DNA of 64,000 nucleotides from Methanohalophilus levihalophilus. Its GTDB lineage: Archaea > Halobacteriota > Methanosarcinia > Methanosarcinales > Methanosarcinaceae. Below are positions 4,088-46,684 of the stretch, piece by piece; the first letter of the stretch is position 1, and each line of letters opens with the position of its first letter. A program made the translations under genes and the position numbers. The stretch lies in assembly GCF_017874375.1 (NCBI RefSeq), contig NZ_JAGGLK010000001.1, forward strand, positions 496,001-560,000. The letters are read 5' to 3'. The notes beneath the pieces were generated by a model that worked only from the letters and a program-made list of their open reading frames with translations, was not told the origin of the DNA and did not search any database.

Positions 4088-5992
4088 TCATTTGCTATTT
4101 AAAAATGTCTCAATTTTCTTTTTAAGAACTTCACTCACAAGCTTGCCATCGGCTTTCCCCCGGAATTGCCCCATAACAATTCCCATGAGAGGGCCTACGG
4201 CACCATGTCCTTTTTCCAAAACGAAATCCGCTCTTTCCACAACTATTTTTTCGGCAAACTCTTCAATCTGGGAGACATCAACGCCGGTGAACCCAAGAGA
4301 ATCAAGTGCATCCTCAAGTTTTTCCCCGGGGTTCTTTGCAAATTCACGAAGGAGGTCTCCAATTCCTTCCTTAGCTGCTTTGCCTTCTGCAACTGCACCA
4401 AAAACAGATAGGAAATGCGAATCAGTGAGCCTATCGGTTTCAACTCCGTTACGGCGCAGCTCCGGAATCATCCCTGTAAGGGTTCTGGATATGAGAGTTG
4501 GGGTAACCGTATTATCTGAACTGAATTTGTCCATCAGTTCTTCGAAAAGTGGAAGATACTGAGAGTATACGATTTTTTCCGCGAGCTCTTCATTTAGGTC
4601 GTATTCCTGCACAAACCTGCCGCATTTTTCCGTAAGCAGTTCAGGAAGTACAATTGAATCGTAGTAATCCCTTGAAATATCAATCGCTGGAACATCTGTT
4701 TCAGGATACATTCTGGATGCTCCAGGAAGCGGTCTCATGTATGCGCTATTGCCATCAGGGAGTGCTCGACGTGTTTCCTCCGGGACAAATTCTAGAGCTT
4801 CCTGTGCCCTTATTAAAACGCTTTCCATGGCTCCATATGCTCTTTCTTTTCTATCAGCAACCAGAGCTACGGCACCTCCTTCCATTGCACCTACTGCATC
4901 CCTGAGAGCATCAACTTCTTCCTGGGTAATGCCATATTTTGGCAACTCATCTGTGTGGAAAATACCTCCCACACCTGATGTTTTTGCCCTGTCGGAAAAT
5001 TCCGTCCCAAGCCTTCTGCCGGGCTGGACTTCCCTGCCAATCAGGCCGTCAAAACCACGCAGCAGGACGGCATAGACTTTACCTTTCTTAATGGATTTCT
5101 TGATGACTTTGGACTCTGTGTCCTTGAAAATGTCAGTTACATCAAATATCTCATCAACAACAGACGCATTTCTGGAAAGCAATTCTTTGCGAATTTCCAG
5201 CAGGTTTACCTGGCGTTCAACTTCTCTTTCCACAATGGTTTCAATCATATCAAGTGCCTGTACACCCTTGATTTCAACCCTTGCACCTTCTGCAATAGAG
5301 ATGTTAACATCCTGACGAATTGTTCCCAAGCCACGCTTCACTCGACCTGTCGAGCGCAGGAGCATTCCTATCATTTCCGCGGTTTCCCTTGCATGTGACG
5401 GAGAAATTATATCCGGGGCTGTTCCAATTTCCACAAGCGGTATCCCGAGCCTGTCAAGGGAATAAATAATTGTGTCTCCGGCATCCTCCAGCTTCTGGGA
5501 AGCTTCTTCTTCAAGACATAGAACGTCCACGCCTACATTTAATTCGCTTGTCGGGACCACGCCTGCATTTGCAAGGAAAGCAGTCCTCTGGAACCCCGAG
5601 GTATTTGATCCATCCACAACAATTTTCCGCATTACATGAAGCTGATCAACCGGCTGCATCTCAAGAAGCTTTGCAACGGTAAGTCCTATTTCCAGAGCTT
5701 CGGAATTCAATTCGGATGGTGGTTCTTCATCATATTCTACCAGACAGGTGGTATCATATCCCTTGTACACATAGCGGCGATTCACCTTAAGCTGCTCCAC
5801 TGCAGCCCTGTCTTTTTCTCCCATTTCGCTTTCAGTAGCGCACAAGTAGCGGAAAAACTCAATGTTGGATTCTGAAGTATCACGAAGAACCGTAGGACAG
5901 TGACAAAACAGTTTTTCCTTCGAATCAAGTTGCTGGTGGATTTCCAGCCCGCATTTTAGACCTAATTTCCTGTAATCAATTTCAGCGCTCAT
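4088..5992 (-). CDS. gatE: glutamyl-tRNA(Gln) amidotransferase subunit E
   Basis: The tRNA-binding and kinase subunit of the archaeal GatDE complex, which converts Glu-tRNA(Gln) to Gln-tRNA(Gln). The protein is 634 aa, full length. The family signature GLEIHQQLD is at residues 16-24, followed by CHCP and [11 protein letters not shown], then the GatB-like cradle with [12 protein letters not shown]. The AspRS-type insertion lies in the middle (about 270-410), and the helical and YqeY-like tail is at the C-terminus. The partner gatD is not adjacent: the gene upstream is an unrelated regulator, so gatD must lie elsewhere. Confidence 0.97.
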
Positions 5993-6166
5993 GGGAACAT
6001 CACCGATAATAAGAATCCGCTATCATGGAATTAGAGAAATTTATAGTAAAGTTACAATTACAGTCCATCATTAAAGGTATAGGTTGTATTAAACTTCACC
6101 TATTGTTTCAATAAAGCTGTCTGGGAGATTACTTCAACCCTTATTGAAAAAAAGAAAAATATTATC

Positions 6167-6883
6167 TCAGGTTTTGATATAGAGAGCGTTTTCTACATTT
6201 TCTCTGATGGACGGATTAATAAAATATCTCTTGTATTTTCCATCAGATTCAAAATCAATGATTCCTTCATTGTGCATGTCACTTATGTGCCAATGTACCG
6301 TGCTTTTATCCAGATTAAAAGTTTGTGTGATTTCTTGATTTGTCATCCCAGGCTTTTGAATTATAGATAGCAAAATCGATTTTCTTGTACTATTTCGCAT
6401 AGCATGTGCGATCTTCTTTTCAGTATCCGTATATTTACTGGATTTCTTAAAAAGAAGTGTGAATTTACCTTTTTTTGCATGAGTTATTTTGTTGGACAAT
6501 TGAAGAGTTCGCACATGATATCGAACGCTACTTCTATTCAATCCCATATCTTTTTCGATATCAGTTATCGTGCTTCCAGGATTCATGGTTATGTAACAAA
6601 GAATTCGATTCCTATTTTGATTTCCATTATATTTCTTTATTCTTCCTAAAAACAGTGGCAAGAATTTATAAAATGCAAATGAGATTCCCAACAGACCGGA
6701 TATATAAACAATTTGAAGGGACAATGGAAGCTCAAAAAATGAAAGGTTGGCATCTGCTCCTCCACCTTCATACAGACCTCTTTCAGGTCCAGTATATGGA
6801 ACTATTTCATACTCGCTTGCATTTACCAAAACAGGACTGCAAACAAATAAAAAAAATAAAAGAGAAATCAGTAATTTACTCAT
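6167..6883 (-). CDS. membrane-anchored winged-helix transcriptional regulator
   Basis: The protein is 238 aa. It has an N-terminal signal-like segment (residues 3-22), a short extracytoplasmic stretch, a membrane segment (about 55-80), then two tandem winged-helix domains in the cytoplasm. The motifs are DIEKDMGLNRSSVRYHVRTL near residue 108 and QEITQTFNLDKSTVHWHISD near residue 182. The layout suggests a one-component sensor whose outer part detects something at the cell surface. It begins 18 bases after the stop of the secreted-protein gene 6902-7324, has no clear ribosome-binding site of its own, and is probably coupled to that gene. It lies divergent from the secretion cluster starting at 7606 and is a candidate regulator of it (inference). 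Confidence 0.85.
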   Translation of the reverse strand: MSKLLISLLFFLFVCSPVLVNASEYEIVPYTGPERGLYEGGGADANLSFFELPLSLQIVYISGLLGISFAFYKFLPLFLGRIKKYNGNQNRNRILCYITMNPGSTITDIEKDMGLNRSSVRYHVRTLQLSNKITHAKKGKFTLLFKKSSKYTDTEKKIAHAMRNSTRKSILLSIIQKPGMTNQEITQTFNLDKSTVHWHISDMHNEGIIDFESDGKYKRYFINPSIRENVENALYIKT

Positions 6884-6901
6884 ATGTAATAAAAGTATTT
6901 T

Positions 6902-7324
6902 TTAGATATAATAGTCTTCCGTCCCTGTTACACGATAACCATAGACCTCATAATGCCACGTTCCAAGGTCAATTCCTCCGGATTTCTTAATCTCAATATT
7001 TATTCTTCCATCGGTGGCACCGTCAGAGCTATCATAAAATGTTCCGACTAGCTGGTTATCTGGATTGTAAACTTTTAATCGGAGTGAATCGCTTGTGTCA
7101 CCCCAATTCAAATCTATGTGAAGGGAAGTTGCGTAAGAACTGACTGACTTGCTATGCCAGTTTGTTTCTCCCTGTGTAATTGTATCGCCAACCCATCTTG
7201 GTGTTATACTGGTATCTGATTTGACAGGAACAACAGTGTACCCGTTATCCTGATTGGCTGTAGCACCGGCAAAGGATACTGAGAAAATCAGCACAATTAA
7301 TAATATTCCTATTTTCTTCATCAT
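6902..7324 (-). CDS. small secreted protein, function unknown
   Basis: The protein is 140 aa with a clean signal peptide (two Met, two Lys, hydrophobic core, cleavage near FAGATA). The mature part is about 118 residues and predicted mainly beta. It has motifs such as NWGDTSDSLRLKVYNPD and a C-terminal GTWHYEVYGY resembling pre-peptidase C-terminal or jelly-roll modules. I chose the ATG at 7324 because AGGAG lies seven bases upstream and the signal peptide starts there. The frame also opens further upstream with no such support. It is first in a two-gene operon with the membrane-anchored regulator 6167-6883, so it may be that regulator's periplasmic partner (inference). Confidence 0.8.
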   Translation of the reverse strand: MMKKIGILLIVLIFSVSFAGATANQDNGYTVVPVKSDTSITPRWVGDTITQGETNWHSKSVSSYATSLHIDLNWGDTSDSLRLKVYNPDNQLVGTFYDSSDGATDGRINIEIKKSGGIDLGTWHYEVYGYRVTGTEDYYI

Positions 7325-7365
7325 AAAAATTCTCCTATAATTTATCAAACTTTCATGTGAAAAAT

Positions 7366-7383
7366 GTAGGATATAACTTTTGT
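7366..7383 (-). promoter_or_regulatory. putative promoter of the 7324/6883 operon
   Basis: On the minus strand the sequence AAAAGTTATATCC lies about 45 bases upstream of the ATG at 7324. It looks like an archaeal BRE/TATA pair that would start transcription about 20 bases before the ribosome-binding site. Confidence 0.4.
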
Positions 7384-7433
7384 GACCATATCGTCCAACT
7401 GAAAGAAAACAGTTTGATGATTTGGTTAGAAAA

Positions 7434-7443
7434 TTTATATATT
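7434..7443 (+). promoter_or_regulatory. putative TATA box of the secretion cluster
   Basis: TTTATATATT preceded by purine-rich GAAAA (BRE-like). Transcription would start near 7462-7468, giving a leader of about 140 bases before the ATG at 7606. That leader contains the hairpin at 7487-7523. Confidence 0.5.
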
Positions 7444-7486
7444 GTTTCTTCATAGAGCATTGTGAGCATCTTTATGGTGTTCGGGA

Positions 7487-7523
7487 GTGGGCTAAGCTAT
7501 CTGAAATTGGTAGCTGAACTCAC
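7487..7523 (+). promoter_or_regulatory. long stem-loop in the leader of the secretion cluster
   Basis: GTGGGCTAAGCTA (7487-7499) pairs with TAGCTGAACTCAC (7511-7523) across an 11-base loop. Eleven of the thirteen positions pair, counting one G-U. It lies between the presumed promoter and the start codon at 7606, so it is in the transcript leader. It may stabilise the messenger or control translation. It matches no riboswitch I recognise. Confidence 0.45.
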
Positions 7524-7605
7524 AGAATGAGCAGGGGTATGTTTGAGATTTCGATTGCAAGCATAGCTTTGCTTTTGAATGAATTGAATAAATAGAGGAA
7601 AATAC

Positions 7606-8853
7606 ATGAAAACAAGAGAAACAAGAATTGCATCACTTTTTATGACGATGCTTATCATAGGTATGTTTGCAGTTGTGCCTGCAATGGCTTGTGTACCTGG
7701 AGAACCGAGTGGTTGTGAAGGAAGTTTAACAAATGCGGAAGAAACTAATTTAATAGAAATAATTGGTGCAGATAAAGAGAACTTCTATAATATAGCAGTT
7801 AAAAATGAACGAGTGAATGAAGTGAAAAGCGATCTTAGTGAACAAGGATTTAAAGAAGCAAACTTTGAAGCCTACGCTAAAGTCATAACACTCGATGACG
7901 GATCTATTCTTGAGACACAATTTGGTGTAATTGAGTTTGAATCATCTGAAGAAACAAAGGAATTGTTTTACATTTATGATCAGGAAACTGGTGAAAATCT
8001 AGTTTTGCTTGCTTCTGAAACAAATCTTGATCTAAATGAAATGAAGATTGGTGCTACTAATAAAAAGGAATATAAAACAACCGAAGTTAATGTCTATGAT
8101 CTTTTTAAAGTAAAGCCAAACAAACTTCCAGTTCCTTTGTTAAGGTACAATAATCTTAATACAGATATGAAAACTGATATACAGTCAATTGCTGACAAAG
8201 CAAATATCAAATCTGAAGATGAAATCGTTGGTATGCTAGAATACAACAATCAAAAAATAGTGCTTGTTGATTCAGATAATGAAGTAACTGAAATAGTTAC
8301 AGACGAACAGGGAAATATTATAGCAACATATCAGCTTGAGCCAACATTTGTTGGCAGTACCGAATACATGAACGAAGAAGCCAACATTCCACTGAAAACA
8401 ACAGTTGACCTATACAAACTAGACATTACAGTTCCTGACAGTAAAGGAAGTCCAGTTCAAACCTTGACAACAAACATCATCACTGCGGAAAATTCAGCAT
8501 GGAAAGAAATTGTTTGTGAACCATGTAAGTATACTAGCAAGGATATGAATGTTGTAGCGAAAGGTAAGTTTTACATAGACTATGGAAATGAAGTAGAATC
8601 TGTAACTCAAATGTCATATTCAGAAACAAATTGCAATATATGTATATCAAAATGTAGTTTTGAAAGATCTACCTCCGGAGGAAGCTATGAAAGACAAGTT
8701 GATGCTACTGGAATATGGGCCGTTAATCTAGCACCAGTAACAGCAAATTTCGAAATATCTTCATGGGTTTCTGTTGACAAATATGGAGATATGGATAGTG
8801 GTGCTTCAGAAGACTCTTGGCTAACTCCCGGATTTGGATGTTACGGTCCCTGA
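7606..8853 (+). CDS. secreted cysteine-rich protein, function unknown (first gene of the cluster)
   Basis: The protein is 415 aa. A signal peptide (residues 1-28) ends VVPAMA before Cys29. Eight cysteines are all predicted outside the membrane: two just after the cleavage site (CVPGEPSGC) and six in the last 125 residues (VCEPCKYT, TNCNICISKC, FGCYGP). The even number suggests four disulfides. An acidic Asp/Glu-rich N-terminal half is followed by a C-terminal half paralogous to the next gene (shared PVPL, LVDSDNEVTEIV, LYKLDITVP, EDSW). GAGG lies seven bases before the ATG. A terminator hairpin follows the stop, so this gene may be made in excess over those downstream. I do not recognise the family. 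Confidence 0.85.
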   Translation: MKTRETRIASLFMTMLIIGMFAVVPAMACVPGEPSGCEGSLTNAEETNLIEIIGADKENFYNIAVKNERVNEVKSDLSEQGFKEANFEAYAKVITLDDGSILETQFGVIEFESSEETKELFYIYDQETGENLVLLASETNLDLNEMKIGATNKKEYKTTEVNVYDLFKVKPNKLPVPLLRYNNLNTDMKTDIQSIADKANIKSEDEIVGMLEYNNQKIVLVDSDNEVTEIVTDEQGNIIATYQLEPTFVGSTEYMNEEANIPLKTTVDLYKLDITVPDSKGSPVQTLTTNIITAENSAWKEIVCEPCKYTSKDMNVVAKGKFYIDYGNEVESVTQMSYSETNCNICISKCSFERSTSGGSYERQVDATGIWAVNLAPVTANFEISSWVSVDKYGDMDSGASEDSWLTPGFGCYGP

Positions 8854-8871
8854 GTAATAGGCTATGACTAA

Positions 8872-8900
8872 AAGGTTGCATTTTAGCAACCTTATTTTTT
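8872..8900 (+). terminator. hairpin terminator or attenuator between the two secreted paralogues
   Basis: The perfect eight-base-pair stem AAGGTTGC/GCAACCTT with a six-base loop is followed by ATTTTTT. It lies 18 bases after the stop at 8853 and before the ribosome-binding site of the 8925 gene. It would end or reduce transcription after the first gene. Confidence 0.65.
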
Positions 8901-8924
8901 GCAGCAAGAGGAGAGATTGATCTT

Positions 8925-9764
8925 ATGTACAAAATGGTTTCTAAAAAAACAATTGCTATAACAATAAGTATGCTTTTGATTTTCAGTCTAATTTCTGCTT
9001 TAGCTACGTTACCTAGGAATCCTGCTCAATCAAGTAATCAGTTCGAGTTTTCAGAATTGTTTAGCTCATCTTTTCAGAAATTTCCAGTTCCTTTGAATAG
9101 CTATTCCATTTCACATAATTACATCGATTCAATTATTGATTCCGCATCTTTTACCACTAATCCTCAAAATGTGATCGGTTTCAGTGAGCTTGAAGAGGCG
9201 AATATTGTACTTATAGAATCAGATGGAAATATAACGGAAATAGTAGTTGATGACAAAGCCAATATTTTAGAAATAAATACATTTGAGATGAAAACACTTG
9301 CTTCAAGAGATTTTTCTGCATCAGGAGAATTAATAGAGGGTACAGTAATAGAATTATATGAGCTTGAAATTCCCCTACCAAACTCAAACAATTCTTCCTT
9401 TCTTACTGTAAATGCCCTCGGAATATCCCATGAAAGTTGGAAGGATGAAAACGGTTGTAAGAGAGATATAAATAAAAAAGTACGCCTTAAAGGACTTTTC
9501 TTTGTTGATAGTTCTGATAACGTACTTGTTACAGGAAATTCAGAGGTATTCACAAATTGTACTTTATTGTCAGTTACTGAAGCTAAAAGCAAATCACAGA
9601 GCGGCGAGATTGTTGGAGAATTCATCAATTCAGTGAAATGGGGAAGTAAAGGACTATTCATAAGTTCTGAATCAGAAAGAGAATCTCACATTGTTGTTGA
9701 TAAATTTCTGAATATCGAAATCTGGGTTACAGAAGATTCATGGATGGGCTGGAAGTTGTTTTGA
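8925..9764 (+). CDS. secreted paralogue of the 7606-8853 protein
   Basis: The protein is 279 aa with a signal peptide (about residues 5-27). It aligns with the C-terminal two-thirds of the preceding protein: PVPL, IVLIESDGNITEIVVDD against LVDSDNEVTEIVTDE, LYELEIPLP against LYKLDITVP, SWKDENGC against AWKEIVC, TNC against TNC, and a shared VDK...EDSW end. It lacks the acidic N-terminal region and has only two cysteines, matching two of the eight in the larger protein. GAGGAG lies about eleven bases before the ATG at 8925. A second Met four residues in is possible. Function is unknown. Confidence 0.85.
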   Translation: MYKMVSKKTIAITISMLLIFSLISALATLPRNPAQSSNQFEFSELFSSSFQKFPVPLNSYSISHNYIDSIIDSASFTTNPQNVIGFSELEEANIVLIESDGNITEIVVDDKANILEINTFEMKTLASRDFSASGELIEGTVIELYELEIPLPNSNNSSFLTVNALGISHESWKDENGCKRDINKKVRLKGLFFVDSSDNVLVTGNSEVFTNCTLLSVTEAKSKSQSGEIVGEFINSVKWGSKGLFISSESERESHIVVDKFLNIEIWVTEDSWMGWKLF

Positions 9765-9839
9765 AGCTCTAAGATCGTTAGATTCACCATACTTAGAGAG
9801 ATTTTTTGAATTTGCTTACTACTATAGGAAGGTATTTAA

Positions 9840-10661
9840 ATGAAATTTCAATTTTTCTTAATTTTATTAGTATTATCAATTTCAACTGTAGGATGTGTCG
9901 AGAACATTCAACAAGACACTCAGGAAAAATACAATTTGGAATATGATTTCCATAAAGGAGACGTTTTTTCATACCAAATTGATACAGTAATACACAATCA
10001 ATACAAAAGCGATTCTAAATTAGCTGATATGGTAGTCAATAGCGCAGAAATAAACGATATTATTTTGGATATCTCAAATAGTGTGATAGTAAATGACGAC
10101 GAGTCGAATGAAAATTATTACCACCTAAACATAAACAACTATGGAGATATTCTAGAGCACAATTCTAGCGACTTAATAATACCTGAAATCGAACCAAAAT
10201 TCATGCTGATATTACCATTTCCAAAAAAAGAAATCGTTAATGGGGACGTATGGGAATCAACTTTGAATGAAAATAATAGTCATTTTGCAGAGAGAAAAAA
10301 TATTGAATATCAGTTATTTGCAAATACCACATTCAGATGTCTTGGCAATGAAATAATTTCAGTGAATGCAGGTGATTTTAATTGCGTAGGGATCGAAAGA
10401 CGCACAAACTATGTTCTTAGTATAAACTCTATACACCAAAATAGAACTGTTTATACCCAGAAAATAACTGGAACCATTATAGGAGCAAGCTGGTTCGATC
10501 TAGAAAAAGGATTTCTTGTGGAATCTGAACATGATTTCAATAAAAATATAAAAACAAATTATTTAGAAATCAATGAAGAACTTGGATTTGAAAGTTTATA
10601 TCAAGAAACTCCTATAAATTCAACTATCGCAATTGAGCTGCTAAATGTACAAGGAGATTAA
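9840..10661 (+). CDS. exported lipoprotein, function unknown
   Basis: The protein is 273 aa. The N-terminal hydrophobic segment ends in the lipobox-like STVGC, with the modified Cys expected at residue 19. The mature protein is rich in Asn, Asp and Glu. A C-terminal pattern (FNCVGIERR, GASWFDLEKGFLVES) resembles beta-rich DUF3108-like exported proteins, which I note as a resemblance only. AGGAAGG lies upstream of the ATG. It ends two bases before the next gene, so it is co-transcribed with the thioredoxin-CcdA gene. A lipoprotein plus thioredoxin-CcdA pair is repeated at 45560-47096. Confidence 0.8.
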   Translation: MKFQFFLILLVLSISTVGCVENIQQDTQEKYNLEYDFHKGDVFSYQIDTVIHNQYKSDSKLADMVVNSAEINDIILDISNSVIVNDDESNENYYHLNINNYGDILEHNSSDLIIPEIEPKFMLILPFPKKEIVNGDVWESTLNENNSHFAERKNIEYQLFANTTFRCLGNEIISVNAGDFNCVGIERRTNYVLSINSIHQNRTVYTQKITGTIIGASWFDLEKGFLVESEHDFNKNIKTNYLEINEELGFESLYQETPINSTIAIELLNVQGD

Positions 10662-10663
10662 AT

Positions 10664-11647
10664 ATGGAGAAGCAGCTCATATGTTCATTTTTTTTGATTT
10701 TTATATTATCCATCCCCACATCTGCCGCACAACCTATTTCCATAGAATATTTCCACCAAACCGGCTGCCATGATTGTGAGGTGACGAACCCTATTATAGA
10801 CAAAATCGAAAATCAATATGAAGATATTATAATTGTGCGGACTAATGTCATAAATATTGAAGGATTTAACCGGTGGAACCAGTATGGGTTTATTGAAGTT
10901 CCGGCCATCGTCATAAATGATGAAACAAAAATTCCAAAGGAAGAAATTACTGAAGAGAATCTCAGGATATCAATTGAAAAATATCTTGAAGAAGACAAAA
11001 CTGAAAAACGACATATAAACCGTGAACTAAACATCCCTTTTGCTTATTCATTAGGCCTTTTTGCAGGATTGTCTCCATGTTTGATGGCAATACTCGGATT
11101 CCTATTAAGCTTTACAGCCGGCACCGGTGAATCTGCGCGTAGCGGTATGGAAAGAGCAGTGGTTTTTGGAATCGGATTGATGGTATCTTACCTTACTATA
11201 GGAATCGGATTACTGGTATTCAAAACATCACTCCCTGATTTGAATCTGTTTTCTTTGCTTACAGGGATTATAGTTGTTGGAATTGGGCTCTATCTGATGG
11301 GAGTTTTTAACTTGCCATTATCACTTGACAACTATTTCCAAAATACTGCCAGAAAACATGCTGGTACAATTGGAGGATTGTTTTTTCTGGGTATTTTATT
11401 TTCCTTGGTAAAGGTACCGTGTACTGTACCAATGCTTCTAGTTTTGCTGAATAAAACCATCACAGAAGGAACAATCGGTGATTTGGGACTGCTATTTGCC
11501 TTTAGTTTTGGAGTACTAACACCATTTATCGGAATTGGGTTGATTGGAGGATATACCTTATCCAAACGTATTCGTGAACATAGAAAATATCTAAAATTGA
11601 TCAGTGGAATATCCCTTGTGTTGTTAGGCATATGGGTGATGATTTAA
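10664..11647 (+). CDS. thioredoxin-like domain fused to a CcdA/DsbD-type membrane domain
   Basis: The protein is 327 aa. A signal peptide (1-21) leads into a thioredoxin-fold domain outside the membrane (about 22-110) with the redox motif CHDC and the cis-proline segment EVPAIVIND. Six or so membrane segments of the CcdA family follow, carrying the two conserved cysteines in LSPCLMAIL and KVPCTVP. The family moves reducing equivalents across the membrane to extracytoplasmic thiols. Its position next to a cysteine-rich exported protein suggests it makes or repairs that protein's disulfides (inference). AAGGAG lies before the ATG. A second copy of this fusion lies at 45560-46684. Confidence 0.9.
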   Translation: MEKQLICSFFLIFILSIPTSAAQPISIEYFHQTGCHDCEVTNPIIDKIENQYEDIIIVRTNVINIEGFNRWNQYGFIEVPAIVINDETKIPKEEITEENLRISIEKYLEEDKTEKRHINRELNIPFAYSLGLFAGLSPCLMAILGFLLSFTAGTGESARSGMERAVVFGIGLMVSYLTIGIGLLVFKTSLPDLNLFSLLTGIIVVGIGLYLMGVFNLPLSLDNYFQNTARKHAGTIGGLFFLGILFSLVKVPCTVPMLLVLLNKTITEGTIGDLGLLFAFSFGVLTPFIGIGLIGGYTLSKRIREHRKYLKLISGISLVLLGIWVMI

Positions 11648-11663
11648 GAAAAGAAAGGTAATC

Positions 11664-12119
11664 ATGCATGCAAAACAATTCCAAGCAAAAATTCTCACAG
11701 TTGTAGGAGGGCTGCTTGGACTTCTTTTTTATTATCTATATATCATCTTTTTGATGAGATTAAAAGCCCATTTTTTTTCTAAGACAGATGAAACGATTTC
11801 GAATTTAGTGGTCGTTCAAAACTGGGGACCTGTAGACTACTGGTTAGATGCCGGTTTGATCGCATTCTTTGTTGTAGCTGGAATCTACATCCTAAACAAT
11901 GATAAGTTACCTGCATCTGAAAGAGCTCGTACTATTGAATTTATAAAGAGTACGCTGATCGGTTTTTTGCTTTATATTCCTATTACAGTAGTAGCTTTTC
12001 TTTCAAATTTTATAATATCAACCAAAATTACTATAGCTGGAGGATATATTTTTATCTTAATTATATACTTAATATTCAGAAGAAAAGTGCCATACAAGAA
12101 TGACTTAAAACGAGGATAA
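11664..12119 (+). CDS. membrane protein with about four transmembrane segments
   Basis: The protein is 151 aa with hydrophobic segments near residues 10-32, 60-80, 98-118 and 122-142, separated by short charged loops. No enzymatic motif is visible. AAAGGT precedes the ATG. It follows the thioredoxin-CcdA gene by 16 bases and is followed two bases later by the first of a run of very small membrane-protein genes, so it is part of the same operon. It could be a transport, immunity or assembly component of the cluster, but nothing in the sequence decides. Confidence 0.75.
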   Translation: MHAKQFQAKILTVVGGLLGLLFYYLYIIFLMRLKAHFFSKTDETISNLVVVQNWGPVDYWLDAGLIAFFVVAGIYILNNDKLPASERARTIEFIKSTLIGFLLYIPITVVAFLSNFIISTKITIAGGYIFILIIYLIFRRKVPYKNDLKRG

Positions 12120-12121
12120 TA

Positions 12122-12301
12122 ATGGAAAAGAAACAATTATTGAGACTATTCCCAGTTTTTTTAGTTATTGGTATAGGAATTCTTAGTAGACTTGTAGCTC
12201 AAAAGATAGTTTGTGATGCCCAATTAATCCAAATAATTCTCATTGTCTTTTTTCTCATAGGTTTTCTTACATATTGGATTATAGCTAAGCTGGAAAGTTA
12301 A
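12122..12301 (+). CDS. 59-aa membrane protein
   Basis: A small protein starting MEKKQLLRLFPVFLVIG with two hydrophobic segments separated by a short polar stretch containing one Cys, and a charged end. It starts two bases after the previous stop and is followed twelve bases later by another small membrane-protein gene with its own AGGAG. Tight packing and an intact frame support that it is real. Function is unknown. Confidence 0.6.
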   Translation: MEKKQLLRLFPVFLVIGIGILSRLVAQKIVCDAQLIQIILIVFFLIGFLTYWIIAKLES

Positions 12302-12313
12302 TAAGGAGATTAC

Positions 12314-12520
12314 ATGAAACCCATGAGGAAAACAAAAGCAATGGATTTCTTAATCAAAACACTAGTTTCAATAGCTCTCATAGCTGCATTTTATAATGCG
12401 TATTTAGAGTTGTTCAAGGATGATTTTAGCCCATTCCTTCTATACATCACATTGATGTTCGTCTTGATGGCAAGTTTTGCTCAGAAAATAAGAAAAGCAA
12501 AACTGAAACAAGTACAATGA
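12314..12520 (+). CDS. 68-aa membrane protein
   Basis: A basic N-terminus (MKPMRKTKAMDF) is followed by two hydrophobic helices (about 13-30 and 40-55) and a Lys/Arg-rich tail. AAGGAG lies seven bases before the ATG. The charge pattern predicts both ends in the cytoplasm. It belongs to the micro-gene run of the secretion cluster. Function is unknown. Confidence 0.65.
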   Translation: MKPMRKTKAMDFLIKTLVSIALIAAFYNAYLELFKDDFSPFLLYITLMFVLMASFAQKIRKAKLKQVQ

Positions 12521-12579
12521 TACTATTCATACTGTTATTCAATCAAATAAAACTCAAAAATCCAGAGGTGAGTCTGTAA
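12517..12579 (+). CDS. possible 20-aa hydrophobic micro-ORF
   Basis: The ATG overlaps the previous stop (ATGA), and its own TAA directly abuts the next ATG at 12580. The peptide begins MILFILLFNQ. The exact tiling with both neighbours suggests translational coupling, but a peptide this short could be chance. Confidence 0.25.
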   Translation: MILFILLFNQIKLKNPEVSL

Positions 12580-12746
12580 ATGGATACAAAACCAATAAAG
12601 AAAATGATCCTAGGAACACAAATTATACTTCTAGGGGGATTTATGATAGTAGATCCTTCAACTGACTAGGTGGGTTAGAATATCTCATAATAATTGCCGG
12701 ATTAGTTATGGGAATAATCGGATTTTCAACTACGGATCTAGCTTAA
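12580..12746 (+). pseudogene. frameshifted two-helix small membrane protein
   Basis: AGGTG lies nine bases upstream of the ATG at 12580, and the first frame encodes a hydrophobic helix up to residue 29 (ending VDPSTD) before TAG at 12667. Directly after this point another frame continues as LGGLEYLIIIAGLVMGIIGF and runs to TAA at 12744-12746. Joined, the two parts make a normal two-helix protein of about 54 residues. A one-base deletion near 12664 would explain it. It could also be a sequencing error. The TAG here is a by-product of the frameshift and not a read-through candidate. Confidence 0.6.
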
Positions 12747-12766
12747 CTTCTTGAGAGTGGATTATT

Positions 12767-12853
12767 ATGGAAAAAAATGCTAAAACTGCTGTAGGTTTCA
12801 TAGTGCTGTGTGTTGCATTCTATGCTTTCTTTTTGATATTGAATTATAGGTGA
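12767..12853 (+). CDS. 28-aa single-helix membrane micro-protein
   Basis: A Lys-containing start (MEKNAKTAVG) is followed by one hydrophobic helix and the end LNYR. A weak GAG-containing ribosome-binding sequence precedes it. The composition resembles the other small membrane proteins here, but it is short enough to be uncertain. Confidence 0.4.
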   Translation: MEKNAKTAVGFIVLCVAFYAFFLILNYR

Positions 12854-12889
12854 ATTGAGAAAAAATGATAACTAAGATGAGATGCTGCT

Positions 12890-13078
12890 ATGAACTCAAA
12901 TTTTACGCAAGTATTTAGCGCACTTTTTATTATTTTTCTATTACTGAATCACATTAATTTATTTGAGCTTACAGTAGTAGCTGTTATCGGTTCAATTTTT
13001 ATCGCATTGATAGAAGCAGCTATTCCGTCAGCTATTCTGTATATTATTTATCGTTTTGCTGTGAAATCTACAACTTGA
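12890..13078 (+). CDS. 62-aa two-helix membrane protein
   Basis: Two hydrophobic segments (about residues 8-28 and 30-55) carry a short polar N-terminus and a basic end (RFAVKSTT). No family recognised. It is part of the micro-gene run on the plus strand downstream of the thioredoxin-CcdA gene. Confidence 0.55.
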   Translation: MNSNFTQVFSALFIIFLLLNHINLFELTVVAVIGSIFIALIEAAIPSAILYIIYRFAVKSTT

Positions 13079-13102
13079 ATTGAAATATTGGATCAGAGAA
13101 AC

Positions 13103-13189
13103 ATGAGAAAATACCAAATGAAAAAACGAGCTTTGTAATTCGCTATAGCTCTTATTGTATGCACATTATTAGGCTACTTATCTAATTAA
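13103..13189 (+). pseudogene. small membrane protein gene with an internal stop
   Basis: ATG followed by a basic start (MRKYQMKKRAL), then TAA at 13136-13138, then in the same frame a hydrophobic helix beginning FAIALIVCTLLGYLSN up to TAA at 13187-13189. Without the internal TAA this would be a typical 28-residue one-helix protein like its neighbours. A TTA, CAA, AAA or GAA codon mutated to TAA would explain it. Confidence 0.45.
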
Positions 13190-13272
13190 TGAATGGAATG
13201 CTTGCTGGAGTTCTCATTGGAATAGGACTCATCGCAGGGATGGAGATTACAGGGAAAAGAAAAAAGTTATGA
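13189..13272 (+). CDS. 27-aa hydrophobic micro-protein
   Basis: The ATG overlaps the preceding TAA (TAATG). The peptide begins MNGMLAGVLIGIGLIAGM and ends in a cluster of Lys and Arg, as expected for a small inner-facing membrane peptide. It is the last member of the plus-strand cluster, 43 bases before the convergent polyferredoxin gene. Confidence 0.4.
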   Translation: MNGMLAGVLIGIGLIAGMEITGKRKKL

Positions 13273-13315
13273 GTTGTTTTGAATTTAGAAAATCTAATTA
13301 TTTTGTCATATAAAC

Positions 13316-14626
13316 TCACTGTGAACAACCACAGCCACTACCTTCATCAGTATCTCCACGTCCCCTTTGCGTTTTTTCTTCCCATTTTCTTCGGGTGGTT
13401 ACATTGCGAAGCTTAGGACGCGCTTTATCCATGCGATCTTTCAGAGCCTTCATAACATTCTCATCAGTTTCAGGGAGTTGGATATCAAGGCGTTCTCGTG
13501 GAGGTTCTTCCTCGGCTTCGAGCGTACGGGACATGTCCGGCCTTTTCCGTACTTCACCCGAAATTGCTGCAATTGCATCTTTCCACTGGGAAGTCCAGGG
13601 TTTATCCGGGATTTCAGAATGGTGGACTTCATCCCTTTTTACCTTCATCACATCATCCGGGCAGGCATTGACACAAGCGCCGCAATATGTGCACATTTCA
13701 GTCCTTGCCGCAATGTTGGTCCCATCATCAGGAACATACCACAAATGAGAGGGACAGATGTTAAAGCATGCATGGCAACCTGATGGATCACATTTCTTGA
13801 CATTGGTGTCTATGAGTGTTAGTTCACCTTCGAAGGGTTTGGAAATATCAACTGCATCGTATGGGCATACAATTTTGCACCACCCACATACCGTACATTT
13901 GTCAGGATCAACTTTTGCCTCACCCTTAATTTCAGGTGCCTCGCCTCTTCGCTCTCCCTTCACGGTTATTGCATCCTCGGGGCAGAGATCAGCACACAGG
14001 ACACAGTAGTCACAAAGATCTTCATCAACGAGTAATTGTTCAAATGGGAAAGGATCTTCCGGAACAGGGTCCTTTTCAAGAAGCAGGAAAGCATCACAGA
14101 ATCTTGCACAAAGCCCGCACAAAGTACATTTATCCGCATCTATTTCGATTTCCCCTTCTTCGCCTTCCTTAAAAGGTGCAATCTCTTCCTTTTTAGGGAA
14201 ATCATAATCAACTGAAATTGCATCTTCAGGGCAGGAAGTCATGCAAATATCACAGGGGAGGCACGTTTCATTGAATGAAACATCCCACTCGAGTTTAGGA
14301 TATTCCTCATCTTCAGGAAAATCTCCTTCTGATTCCATTTTAAAAGCAGAAATCGGACACAGGTTTGCGCACATTGAGCAAAAAGTACACTTATCAAGAA
14401 CCATCATCACAGGAGGGATTTCCATACCCTTTGCAATATCGTAAATCAGACCAAGTTCAAGTGCTTCCGTTGGACATACATCCACACATATTCCGCATCC
14501 TGTGCAGCGTTTGGAATCGTAATCAAGAGTTTTCCTACCCTTGTCGGTTTTCAGGCGGTAGAGCAGGTGAGTGCCTTCTACATCCATATTCCTTGAGACC
14601 TCAAGGGATTTCTCCTCATCACTCAT
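13316..14626 (-). CDS. polyferredoxin with eight [4Fe-4S] motifs
   Basis: A 436-aa electron carrier. Seven standard CxxCxxCxxxC motifs and one variant (CDPSGCHACFNIC) are spaced along residues 35-340, enough for eight [4Fe-4S] clusters, as in FwdF-type polyferredoxins. The last 100 residues are acidic to basic linker ending GSGCGCSQ. I chose the ATG at 14626 because GGAGG lies six bases upstream. It overlaps the hdrA stop by eight bases, so it is translated with hdrA. It probably carries electrons between HdrA-type flavoproteins and ferredoxin or formylmethanofuran dehydrogenase. Confidence 0.92.
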   Translation of the reverse strand: MSDEEKSLEVSRNMDVEGTHLLYRLKTDKGRKTLDYDSKRCTGCGICVDVCPTEALELGLIYDIAKGMEIPPVMMVLDKCTFCSMCANLCPISAFKMESEGDFPEDEEYPKLEWDVSFNETCLPCDICMTSCPEDAISVDYDFPKKEEIAPFKEGEEGEIEIDADKCTLCGLCARFCDAFLLLEKDPVPEDPFPFEQLLVDEDLCDYCVLCADLCPEDAITVKGERRGEAPEIKGEAKVDPDKCTVCGWCKIVCPYDAVDISKPFEGELTLIDTNVKKCDPSGCHACFNICPSHLWYVPDDGTNIAARTEMCTYCGACVNACPDDVMKVKRDEVHHSEIPDKPWTSQWKDAIAAISGEVRKRPDMSRTLEAEEEPPRERLDIQLPETDENVMKALKDRMDKARPKLRNVTTRRKWEEKTQRGRGDTDEGSGCGCSQ

Positions 14627-16970
14627 CCTTAACCTCCGACAACTCGGAACCAACCGGCCCAAGTTCACTTAACTCATCAACAAAATTCTCAATTGAATGA
14701 GCAAATTTCTCGCATTCAGATGCCGAAATCCATTCAACCCTCAACCTGTGTGGATCAAGTCCCATTTCTTGCAGCAATGCGGCAACATTCTTCATTCTCG
14801 TTGCTGCGTGATAATTACCGTTAACGTAATGACATTCGCCAAGCCTGCAGCCTGCAACCATTACCCCGTCTGCACCCTTTTCAAGGGAGTGAAGGACAAA
14901 GTCAGGATCAACACGACCTGCACACATCAATTTAATAATTCGAATATTTGTCGGATACTGTATACGGGACATCCCTGCAAGGTCTGCAGCAGCATAACTG
15001 CACCAGTTGCACAGGAATCCAATAATCAGTGGGAATTCATCCTTGACTTCCAGAGCTGCGTCTATCTGGGCGTAAATCTGTGCATCACTATACTGATTCA
15101 TGTAAATTGCATCTGTGGGACATGAAGCGCTGCATGTACCGCATCCGCTGCATGAGATTTCATCCACTACTGCTTTACCATCTTTTATTGTGATATTTCC
15201 GTAGTCACATACTTCAGTGCAGACTCCGCAACCAATGCATTTTTCATGATTGATAAAAGCAGTTAAAGGATCCGTCTTGAGCTCACCTTGCTCAAGAAGG
15301 CGAACTGCACGTGCTGCCGCTGCTGCTCCCTGCGCAATTGAAAGTTGAATTTCCTTTGGCCCGGAAACACAGCCTGCCACAAAGATACCGTTTATGTGGG
15401 AATCTACAGGTCTCATTTTAGGATGCGCAACCGCCACAAACCGATCTTCCCTGCATGTAACCTTGAGTTTGCGTATCAGCTCTGAATCCTTGTTGGCTTC
15501 CATTGCTGTGGAAAGAACCACCATGTCATATGGATCCTCTCGGATTGTACATTCAAGGGTATCCTCATAACGAAGCAAAAGATCTTCTTTCTCACCGATT
15601 ACCTCTGCTACTTTACCCCGGATAAAATTGATTCCCATTGACTGGCTTTTTGTGTAATATTCTTCGTACATCTCACCGGAAGCACGAATGTCGATGTAAT
15701 GTATTGTTATATCAATATCAGGATAGCGTTCCTTAAGAAGCTGTGCGTTCTTCATTGCAGACATGCAGCAAACTCTGGAACAGTAGGGGTTTCCAACGGA
15801 TTCATCCCTCGAACCCACGCACTGGATAAATGCAACCTTTGATGGAATGTTCCCTGAAGATGGGCATACCACTTTTCCTCTTGTGGGTCCTGATGCATTG
15901 AGCAACCTTTCAAGTTCCATGTTTGTGAGTACATCCGGGTAAACTCCATACCCGTACTCTTCTTTGCGGTGTGGATCAAACAGATCAAATCCGGTTGCTG
16001 CAATTATTGCACCAACATTTAGCTTAATTTCCTCTGCTTTCTGGTCAAATTCCACTGCATCTGAAGGACAAGCCTGTACGCAAAGACCACATCCAACACA
16101 AAAGGCAGGATCAATTACCGCTACAGGCGGTACTGCCTGCGGTATAGGAATATTGATTGCCTTGGCTTTCCCCATGCCCTGATCAAATCTGGAGGGCATT
16201 GCAACCGGGCAAACGCGTGAACACTCGTCGATACATCCTTTGCATTTTTCCTCGGAAACATAACGTGGACTGCGTGTTACTGTAGCATGGAAGTTACCTA
16301 CATTGCCTGAAAGAGCGGTAACTTCTGACAGTGTATAAAGATCAATATTCGGATGGTTCTGGACATCAGTCATCTTCGGACCCAAAACACAGATAGAACA
16401 ATCATTAGTGGGGAACACTTCATTAAACAGTGCCATTTTCCCTCCGATTGTCGGTTCTTTTTCAACCATGTAAACGTGATATCCTGAATCCGCAAGGTTA
16501 AGGGCAGCTTCGATTCCTGCAACCCCTCCGCCTACAACCAGAACTTCCCTGATTACAGATGTCTTCCGAATCTGGAGAGGAATCAGATTGCTAAGTCTTC
16601 CAATGCCCATTTTGATAAGATCATATGCTTTTCTGGTTGCAATCTGCGGGTTTTCCATGTGCACCCATGAACATTGTTCCCTTATGTTTACAATCTCAAG
16701 CATATATGGATTTAAACCAGCCTTTTCCATCACTTTCCTGAAAGTGGTTTCATGAAGTTTAGGAGTACATGCTGCAACCAGAATACGGTCAAGCCCATGT
16801 TCTCTTATGTCCTCTATCATGCTCTCCTGGCCGGAATCAGAACACATAAACTGGATATCTTTTGCCACTTCAATATCGGGAACTGATTCAAGCATTTCCA
16901 TGAGCTGCCTGATATCAATAACATTTGCAATATTGAGCCCGCAGTGACAAATGTAAACTCCAATTTTCAT
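14619..16970 (-). CDS. hdrA: heterodisulfide reductase subunit A fused to an MvhD-like domain
   Basis: The protein is 783 aa. The N-terminal HdrA domain is followed by the FAD-binding motif VVGGGVAGIEAALNLADSG near residue 145, then [4Fe-4S] motifs in CKGCIDECSRVC, CVGCGLCVQAC, CIGCGVCTEVC and CSGCGTCSASC. The last 140 residues are an MvhD-type [2Fe-2S] domain with CNWCSY, CAGR and CRLGECHY. HdrA is the flavin bifurcation subunit of cytoplasmic heterodisulfide reductases. The MvhD fusion would accept electrons without a separate hydrogenase subunit. AAGGAG precedes the ATG. hdrB and hdrC are absent here, so the gene pairs only with the polyferredoxin. Confidence 0.95.
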   Translation of the reverse strand: MKIGVYICHCGLNIANVIDIRQLMEMLESVPDIEVAKDIQFMCSDSGQESMIEDIREHGLDRILVAACTPKLHETTFRKVMEKAGLNPYMLEIVNIREQCSWVHMENPQIATRKAYDLIKMGIGRLSNLIPLQIRKTSVIREVLVVGGGVAGIEAALNLADSGYHVYMVEKEPTIGGKMALFNEVFPTNDCSICVLGPKMTDVQNHPNIDLYTLSEVTALSGNVGNFHATVTRSPRYVSEEKCKGCIDECSRVCPVAMPSRFDQGMGKAKAINIPIPQAVPPVAVIDPAFCVGCGLCVQACPSDAVEFDQKAEEIKLNVGAIIAATGFDLFDPHRKEEYGYGVYPDVLTNMELERLLNASGPTRGKVVCPSSGNIPSKVAFIQCVGSRDESVGNPYCSRVCCMSAMKNAQLLKERYPDIDITIHYIDIRASGEMYEEYYTKSQSMGINFIRGKVAEVIGEKEDLLLRYEDTLECTIREDPYDMVVLSTAMEANKDSELIRKLKVTCREDRFVAVAHPKMRPVDSHINGIFVAGCVSGPKEIQLSIAQGAAAAARAVRLLEQGELKTDPLTAFINHEKCIGCGVCTEVCDYGNITIKDGKAVVDEISCSGCGTCSASCPTDAIYMNQYSDAQIYAQIDAALEVKDEFPLIIGFLCNWCSYAAADLAGMSRIQYPTNIRIIKLMCAGRVDPDFVLHSLEKGADGVMVAGCRLGECHYVNGNYHAATRMKNVAALLQEMGLDPHRLRVEWISASECEKFAHSIENFVDELSELGPVGSELSEVKDE

Positions 16971-45559: not shown

Positions 45560-46684
45560 TTAGATCACGTTAAAATACAACAGTACAGCAAGTAGTATCA
45601 GCACTACACCTGTAACAAAACGTATTGCTGAACGTCTTTTCTCCCTGAATTCCATCACTGTTTCAGGGCTCAATCCAAATGCCAGGAAAATACCGAGTCC
45701 AAGCACCGGAAATACAACACCGAAATTGTAAATGACGAGATAGAAAGCACCTTCCAGAAGATCGGTTCTTGAGATTAACATATCCAGTATGGAAAGGTAA
45801 ACCGCTCCGACACAGGGAGCTTTGACCAGCGAGAACAAGCCGCCTGCAAGGAATGACAAAGCAAGCGCATTCTTCCCATGTATGTTATTCATAAATGAGA
45901 TTACCGAACCTGGTGTTTTGAACGTTGATTCAGAATGCTTTCTAAGGTAATACGCATCATAGACATGCCAGATGCCCAGGATACCTATGATTACCGTCAT
46001 GAATAATGTAATAGCGCCTCTGGATTCCGGAAGTATGCTTACCGCCTTAAGAAAACTTAATCCGGCTATCATGTAGGTTGTAAAAATACCCGCGCAGAAG
46101 CTCCCGACTACTATGAGCATTTCTTTCTTGCCACCGTTTGATGAAATTGTTACCGATGCAAGAAATGCCATTACTGCTAGAAGGCAAGGATTAAACCCCG
46201 CAAGGAAACCCGCTATCAATACAACAGCCGGAGATAGCTCAAAGGGAGTACCTTCTTCCTCATTCTCTTCTGCTAAGTGCTCAATTGTCTCATCATCAGG
46301 AATTGCAGGAGCATTCTCAATCGCATCAATCAACAGGTTCTCAAGTACTGCAGGATCGCCTTCATAATCTGAATAAGAGATAACGGTCGTCTTATTCACC
46401 ACAATAGCAGGAACAGTGTAGATTCCATAGCTCTTCAGAAGGCTGTAGGAAGTTGCTATATTGTGTGTTGTGTAATTACTGTTGTCATATTTGTTGATTA
46501 CAGAATCTATGACAGGTGATGTTTGCTCGCATTTCAGGCAACCATCTTCATAAAAGTACTCAACCAGTATTTCATCCGAAGGTGCTGCCATAGCAGGAGA
46601 AATACCTGAAATAGCAAGGAGAAACACCAGAAAAAAGATTATTGAATCAGTGGCATACTGTCGTAGCACATGTCTCTTTGTCAT
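45560..46684 (-). CDS. thioredoxin-like domain fused to a CcdA/DsbD-type membrane domain (second copy)
   Basis: A 374-aa protein. A signal peptide ends at AMAAPSDE. The thioredoxin-like domain carries CLKC and VPAIVVNK, then an acidic linker (EENEEEG), then the CcdA-like membrane part with NPCLLAV and KAPCVGA. It is the same architecture as the 10664-11647 protein but clearly diverged. It starts inside the 3' end of the upstream lipoprotein gene (38-base overlap), so the two are translated together. It probably supplies electrons or disulfides to that lipoprotein, which has its own Cys pairs (inference). Confidence 0.9.
   Translation of the reverse strand: MTKRHVLRQYATDSIIFFLVFLLAISGISPAMAAPSDEILVEYFYEDGCLKCEQTSPVIDSVINKYDNSNYTTHNIATSYSLLKSYGIYTVPAIVVNKTTVISYSDYEGDPAVLENLLIDAIENAPAIPDDETIEHLAEENEEEGTPFELSPAVVLIAGFLAGFNPCLLAVMAFLASVTISSNGGKKEMLIVVGSFCAGIFTTYMIAGLSFLKAVSILPESRGAITLFMTVIIGILGIWHVYDAYYLRKHSESTFKTPGSVISFMNNIHGKNALALSFLAGGLFSLVKAPCVGAVYLSILDMLISRTDLLEGAFYLVIYNFGVVFPVLGLGIFLAFGLSPETVMEFREKRRSAIRFVTGVVLILLAVLLYFNVI

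What the first reader, a model, noticed from the sequence alone, without database searches (positions are those of the whole stretch)
7606..13272. Secreted cysteine-rich protein cluster with its own thiol oxidoreductase
Seen: an exported eight-cysteine protein, a two-cysteine paralogue, a lipoprotein, a thioredoxin-CcdA protein, a four-helix protein and a chain of tiny membrane proteins, all on one strand and A+T-rich. Such a set recalls loci for disulfide-rich secreted effectors or peptides with export and self-protection proteins. I find no known halocin signature, so this could be an undescribed system.
Basis: partly seen in the sequence, partly recalled or inferred. Interest (0 to 1): 0.7.

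Follow-up and report, generated by a model that had tools for sequence, protein, structure and literature searches.

The report
Halocin-type locus with swapped cargo
A methanogen carries a small accessory island related to the gene sets with which archaea appear to make halocin-like antimicrobial peptides, but in this copy the toxic peptide has been replaced by a different secreted domain whose membrane-anchored twin is encoded next door.

Summary
The genes are real: all eight reported ORFs exist. They lie in a 7.2 kb A+T-rich island (about 6109-13342), absent from 7 of 7 congeners (one keeps a regulator remnant). The first gene is not an orphan. Its N-terminal domain, signal peptide excluded, matches over a dozen 200-222 aa Cys-rich secreted precursors in Methanosarcinales (best E=4e-17). 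A relative sharing its signal region ends in the halocin C8 domain. At 25 of 26 such precursors, homologues of the window's lipoprotein and/or thioredoxin-CcdA follow. So the window holds a derived halocin-type locus. Its precursor has exchanged the hydrophobic Cys-rich peptide (8-14 Cys; here 3, not hydrophobic) for a 265-aa domain, a paralogue of the next gene. Two wider results: in Methanosarcina the known antisense sRNA162 lies over the 5' leaders of exactly these precursors, so its cis-target of unknown function, MM2442, is probably one. And a covarying two-hairpin 5' leader RNA, without an Rfam family on its own strand, precedes secreted-protein genes in 97 of 185 genomes of the order. 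The window's copy is degenerate.

The parts
6109..13342 (.). accessory island, GC 0.338
   Evidence: DNA similarity to closest congener G111 stops at 6108 and resumes at 13343; in 7/7 congeners gatE and the hdr-like gene are neighbours without it; G111 keeps a decayed 3' remnant of the HTH gene; GC
6167..6883 (-). gm1: signal peptide, short ectodomain, TM, two winged HTH; membrane-anchored regulator of the MM2441 type
   Evidence: Pfam HTH_24 E=6e-17, HTH_HVO_0163_N 6e-11; hydrophobic segments 4-22 and 61-79; homologues beside Methanosarcina precursors
6902..7453 (-). gm2: small secreted protein; true start probably at 7324
   Evidence: homologues 35-76% identical next to gm1 homologues; Met44 start matches orthologues
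7480..7577 (+). degenerate copy of a two-hairpin 5' leader RNA, 28 nt before the start codon of g1
   Evidence: folds at -35.7 kcal/mol; 31.8 bits with a model that included it; only 11.8 bits, E=0.012 in 1 kb, with an independent model and nothing in the 64 kb scan
7606..8853 (+). g1: fusion of halocin-type precursor N-terminal domain (about residues 1-150) with a 265-aa cargo domain carrying 6 Cys
   Evidence: residues 38-145 match Cys-rich precursors, best E=4e-17; C-domain 68% identical in SMBSF02/G023
8871..8901 (+). terminator-like hairpin (8 bp, -11.5 kcal/mol, then T run) between g1 and g2; also after g1 in G023
8925..9764 (+). g2: paralogue of the g1 cargo behind a long hydrophobic N-terminus (probable signal anchor)
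   Evidence: hydrophobic segment mean 2.3-3.05 in orthologues, no conserved AxA cleavage site
9840..10661 (+). g3: lipoprotein, DUF3108-like family
   Evidence: PF21347 matches 8 of 9 family members, best E=6e-7; found in 14 of 185 genomes, mostly directly at precursor loci
10664..11647 (+). g4: thioredoxin (CHDC) fused to CcdA/DsbD transmembrane domain
   Evidence: CHDC and the two TM cysteines invariant in 11 homologues
11664..12119 (+). g5: four-TM membrane protein
   Evidence: 54% identical homologue near g2 in G092; TM count
12122..12301 (+). g6: two-TM small protein
   Evidence: no homologue found
12314..12520 (+). g7: two-TM small protein of a wider family, often near g2
12890..13078 (+). 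g8: two-TM small ORF
   Evidence: no homologue found

Best explanation
The island is a derived halocin-type precursor locus. Shown: gene 1 keeps the signal peptide and N-terminal domain of a Methanosarcinales family of Cys-rich secreted precursors, and the locus keeps that family's lipoprotein and thioredoxin-CcdA, with an MM2440/MM2441-type regulator pair beside it. Also shown: at the place where relatives carry a hydrophobic Cys-rich C-terminal peptide, gene 1 carries a different 265-residue domain, and the next gene is a paralogue of that domain. Inferred: gene 1 is exported by Sec; Trx-CcdA, which carries electrons outward, keeps the cargo's six cysteines correctly paired; the N-terminal domain keeps the cargo inactive or is cut off; the cargo acts on related cells; and the membrane-anchored paralogue (gene 2), with the lipoprotein and small membrane proteins, protects the producer or serves as receptor.
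For: Leader domain homology without the signal peptide. Precursor loci carry g3 and/or g4 homologues in 25 of 26 cases. TIGR04449 halocin C8 domain at the C-terminus of a precursor that shares the signal region; the leader profile finds other C8-domain precursors at E=2e-10 to 3e-8. Junction at the peptide start. Canonical last 72 aa: 8-14 Cys, GRAVY +0.6 to +1.35; window 3 Cys, -0.21. Same fusion in G023 with its own g2. Six cargo cysteines conserved in g1-type proteins, two in most g2-type proteins. In G183 a halocin C8 precursor is followed by remnants of g2 and g3 and then g4, the window's gene order. Catalytic cysteines of g4 invariant. Purifying selection on orthologues.
Against: g2 occurs without g1 in five to six genomes and in G023 the pair lacks g3/g4 nearby, so the pair may have its own function. 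The N-terminal domain has no significant sequence match to the classical haloarchaeal ProC8 examples (best 9e-4 and 2e-3).
Confidence: 0.45

Rival explanations
1. Exapted locus: the antimicrobial peptide was lost and the g1/g2 pair is now a secreted plus membrane-anchored surface or adhesion pair, with Trx-CcdA simply folding its disulfides.
For: The cargo is soluble and has no halocin peptide; g2 orthologues occur alone among other secreted proteins in genus g7; the pair stands without g3/g4 in G023; the 5' leader RNA is degenerate in the window.
Against: Retention of leader, lipoprotein, Trx-CcdA and regulator under constraint; fusion exactly at the peptide junction; patchy island that was lost in sister G111, typical of conflict loci.
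Confidence: 0.3
2. Immunity locus: g1 (leader domain plus soluble domain) and g2 are decoys that bind a rival's halocin-type peptide; the genome is a resistant non-producer.
For: In haloarchaea the N-terminal part of ProC8 is the immunity protein HalI (PMC11509114); g1 has lost the peptide; g2 without g1 would be orphan immunity.
Against: A six-Cys secreted cargo with dedicated Trx-CcdA is not needed for a decoy; no cognate halocin with g2 in intact form was seen.
Confidence: 0.15
3. Ordinary secreted proteins side by side, without a joint function.
For: g5, g6 and g8 have no or few homologues near precursors.
Against: g3 and g4 homologues recur at 25 of 26 precursor loci; discrete island boundaries.
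Confidence: 0.08

Closest known systems
Halocin C8 (ProC8 = HalI + HalC8; domain TIGR04449)
   Same: Secreted precursor with signal peptide, N-terminal domain and C-terminal effector; a relative sharing the window gene's signal region ends in TIGR04449.
   Different: Window gene has no C8 domain and no hydrophobic Cys-rich peptide; secretion signal looks Sec-like rather than Tat; locus has Trx-CcdA and lipoprotein, which the short haloarchaeal stretches read here did not show.
M. mazei MM2440-MM2442 locus with antisense sRNA162 (PMC3510493, RF02792)
   Same: Same gene set: gm2-gm1 type regulator pair beside a leader-type Cys-rich precursor and a Trx-CcdA gene (L047).
   Different: No sRNA162 match in the window; regulator pair is divergent; precursor cargo swapped. 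The paper calls MM2442 a protein of unknown function.
Bacteriocin loci with dedicated thiol-disulfide oxidoreductases (e.g. sublancin/BdbB; papers listed)
   Same: A thiol oxidoreductase gene sits in the locus of a disulfide-bonded secreted peptide (general knowledge).
   Different: There a BdbB-type oxidase; here a thioredoxin fused to CcdA, expected to reduce or isomerise. No homology tested.

Membership tests
Halocin C8 family (TIGR04449) | C-terminal halocin C8 domain | tested here: not met
   window g1 has no NCBIfam match; G000 has no TIGR04449 match
Halocin C8 family (TIGR04449) | hydrophobic Cys-rich C-terminal peptide | tested here: not met
   last 72 aa: 3 Cys, GRAVY -0.21 against 8-14 Cys and +0.6 to +1.35 in relatives
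Methanosarcinales leader-type Cys-rich precursors | signal peptide plus homologous N-terminal domain | tested here: met
   residues 38-145, E=4e-17 to 6e-7 against twelve precursors
Methanosarcinales leader-type Cys-rich precursors | followed by lipoprotein and/or Trx-CcdA genes | tested here: met
   g3 and g4 present; 25 of 26 precursor loci
Methanosarcinales leader-type Cys-rich precursors | C-terminal Cys-rich hydrophobic peptide | tested here: not met
   hence filed as a variant, not a member
Methanosarcinales leader-type Cys-rich precursors | two-hairpin 5' leader RNA | tested here: inconclusive
   right place and spacing, but 11.8 bits, E=0.012 per 1 kb with the independent model, no hit in 64 kb
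CcdA/DsbD_TM | DsbD_TM domain with paired TM cysteines and outer CxxC thioredoxin | tested here: met
   PF02683 above cut-off; CHDC, SPC and KVPC cysteines invariant
sRNA162 (RF02792) | covariance model match antisense to the precursor leader | tested here: not met
   none in window
Antimicrobial effector | inhibits related archaea | not testable with these tools
   needs culture

The most novel reading that the evidence does not exclude
Archaeal halocin-type precursors are modular, polymorphic-toxin-like proteins: a conserved leader exports interchangeable cargoes, here a large soluble domain guarded by a membrane-anchored paralogue. Their expression in Methanosarcina is controlled by antisense sRNA162, acting on a 5' leader RNA that is shared with much of the secretome.
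Probability: 0.35. Interest if true: 0.8.

Novelty: new variant of a known kind. Interest (0 to 1): 0.62.

Why it matters
It gives a testable identity to a whole class of methanogen loci. The unknown cis-target of a well studied archaeal sRNA (sRNA162/MM2442) becomes a candidate halocin-like precursor with its own Trx-CcdA, which would add antagonism to a story so far about carbon sources. The cargo swap suggests that archaeal halocin leaders can carry different effectors. The 5' leader RNA, found in about half of the order's genomes, offers a handle on how methanogens control secreted proteins.

Tried and rejected
Pfam, NCBIfam and PHROGs gave no family for g1, g2 or the small ORFs. PDB profile searches with cargo and leader alignments found nothing credible. 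No shared repeat longer than 10 nt at the island ends. No sRNA162 in the window. g7 and gm1 were considered as locus-specific markers and rejected because both belong to wider families. The first leader-RNA models R1 and R2 had the second helix one column out of register; corrected in R3 and before the covariation count. The key survey (doi 10.1128/mBio.00715-19) and the HalI paper are not in the library, so I could not check whether methanogen loci of this kind are already listed there.

Full report
Observation. The eight reported genes exist at the stated places on one strand. Their GC is 0.338 against 0.44 on the left and 0.43 on the right. Comparison with seven congeners shows that gatE (4088-5992) and the hdr-like gene (13316-14668) are neighbours in all of them. 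In the closest one, G111, similarity stops at window 6108 and resumes at 13343, and the gap in G111 keeps a decayed 3' piece of the HTH gene (KRYFINP...). So 6109-13342 is one accessory island that includes the divergent pair gm1/gm2, and G111 probably lost it. No long repeats flank it.

What gene 1 is. Residues 1-136 match 200-222 aa secreted proteins in several families of the order, about 30-40% identical. Without the signal peptide, residues 38-145 still match twelve of them at E=4e-17 to 6e-7. These proteins end in 8-14 Cys per 72 residues, GRAVY +0.6 to +1.35. A relative that shares the signal region (G183) carries the halocin C8 domain TIGR04449 at E=1.6e-12, and a profile of the leader domain finds other C8-domain precursors at E=2e-10 to 3e-8. 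The C-terminal 265 residues of gene 1 are different: 3 Cys in the last 72, GRAVY -0.21, and 29% identical to gene 2. The same fusion occurs in Methanosarcinales archaeon SMBSF02 (G023), 68% identical in this domain and with an internally deleted leader, again directly upstream of a gene-2 orthologue. The domain family is in 10 of 185 genomes of the order, though two of these show only short matches; gene 2 orthologues stand without gene 1 in five genomes of genus g7, and a more distant relative in G136. G183 shows precursor, remnants of g2 and g3, then g4, which is the window's order.

The locus type. For 25 of 26 leader-type precursors, homologues of g3 and/or g4 follow, usually with a small 2-4 TM protein (the remnant g4 in L035 is). 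g3 belongs to a DUF3108-like lipoprotein family. g4 keeps CHDC in the thioredoxin part and both CcdA cysteines in all 11 homologues compared. By analogy with DsbD/CcdA, g4 should carry electrons outward and so reduce or isomerise disulfides; this is inference. In haloarchaea ProC8 is cut into immunity protein HalI and HalC8 (PMC11509114).

Link to sRNA162. Rfam RF02792 lies antisense over the 5' leaders of twelve Methanosarcina precursors (L041 x2, L042, L043 x2, L045 x3, L046 x2, L047, L050). In M. mazei this RNA binds the 5' UTR of MM2442, a protein of unknown function, and masks the ribosome-binding site of the regulator MM2441 in the MM2440-MM2441 mRNA (PMC3510493). L047 has the described order gm2, gm1, sRNA, precursor, a Trx-CcdA gene, then a second regulator and a second sRNA, as in MM2440-MM2449. 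I infer, from order and distances, that MM2442 is such a precursor. The paper finds no RBS before the MM2442 start; in L047 an in-frame TTG 14 codons further upstream has one (GAGGTG), and taking the internal ATG as the annotated start gives 118 nt to the sRNA 5' end against the 119 nt that follow from the paper.

A 5' leader RNA. The precursors share a leader of two hairpins ending about 25-28 nt before the start codon. A model built on these leaders finds matches in 97 of 185 genomes of the order, up to 21 per genome. In 27 matches outside the training set, the corrected three-helix structure is 91% paired, with 56 double-changed cells against 20.5 in shuffles and at most 17 when slid. The alignment was fitted to a related model, which leans the counts towards it, but helix 1 varies at every pair. 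Of 51 copies with an ORF behind them, 50 encode a hydrophobic N-terminus; 24 of these copies were chosen because they precede precursors, but all 13 further copies from other loci that have an ORF do so too. About a third of large ORFs in the window would pass that hydrophobicity test by chance. On its own strand the leader matches no Rfam family. A model without any training precursor recovers the precursor leaders but gives the window copy only 11.8 bits, so the window copy is degenerate or lost.

Mechanism. Shown: fusion, locus membership, separate g1-g2 pairing, catalytic residues, constraint (dN/dS about 0.2 between orthologues). The two G023 copies of g1 and g2 have dN close to dS, meaning relaxed or diversifying selection; one g1 copy is truncated. 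Inferred: secretion, disulfide care by g4, cargo action on relatives, protection by membrane-anchored g2. A terminator-like hairpin directly after g1, present also in G023, would give more g1 than downstream products, as expected for a secreted product over its helpers.

Limits. The N-terminal match to classical haloarchaeal ProC8 proteins is weak. The main survey of archaeal antimicrobial loci was not readable, so earlier listing of these methanogen loci cannot be excluded.

Noticed in passing
L043:7436-7537, L047:10402-10503 and many loci; 97 of 185 genomes: Covarying two-hairpin 5' leader RNA in front of secreted-protein genes across Methanosarcinales, no Rfam match on its own strand.
   Followed up: partly
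L041, L042, L043, L045, L046, L047, L050: sRNA162 (RF02792) is antisense to the leaders of halocin-like precursors, one copy per precursor; its cis-target MM2442 is probably such a precursor.
   Followed up: partly
L047:10333-10375: The presumed MM2442 start seems annotated 14 codons too far downstream; an RBS-preceded TTG lies upstream.
   Followed up: partly
6167-7453: gm1 ectodomain and mature gm2 both begin with a Y-x-V-x-P-like motif (YEIVPY / YTVVPV), also in relatives; perhaps they interact.
   Followed up: no
45563-46684: Second protein with a thioredoxin-like CLKC motif after a signal peptide (VEYFYEDGCLKC), with a small lipoprotein upstream; possibly the housekeeping relative of g4.
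   Followed up: no
L031:5112-6563: Near the G023 g1-g2 pairs, repeated C39-like peptidase ORFs alternate with signal-anchor proteins.
   Followed up: no
L031/L032 g1 and g2 copies: Tandem g1-g2 duplicates in G023 have dN about equal to dS, unlike orthologues.
   Followed up: no
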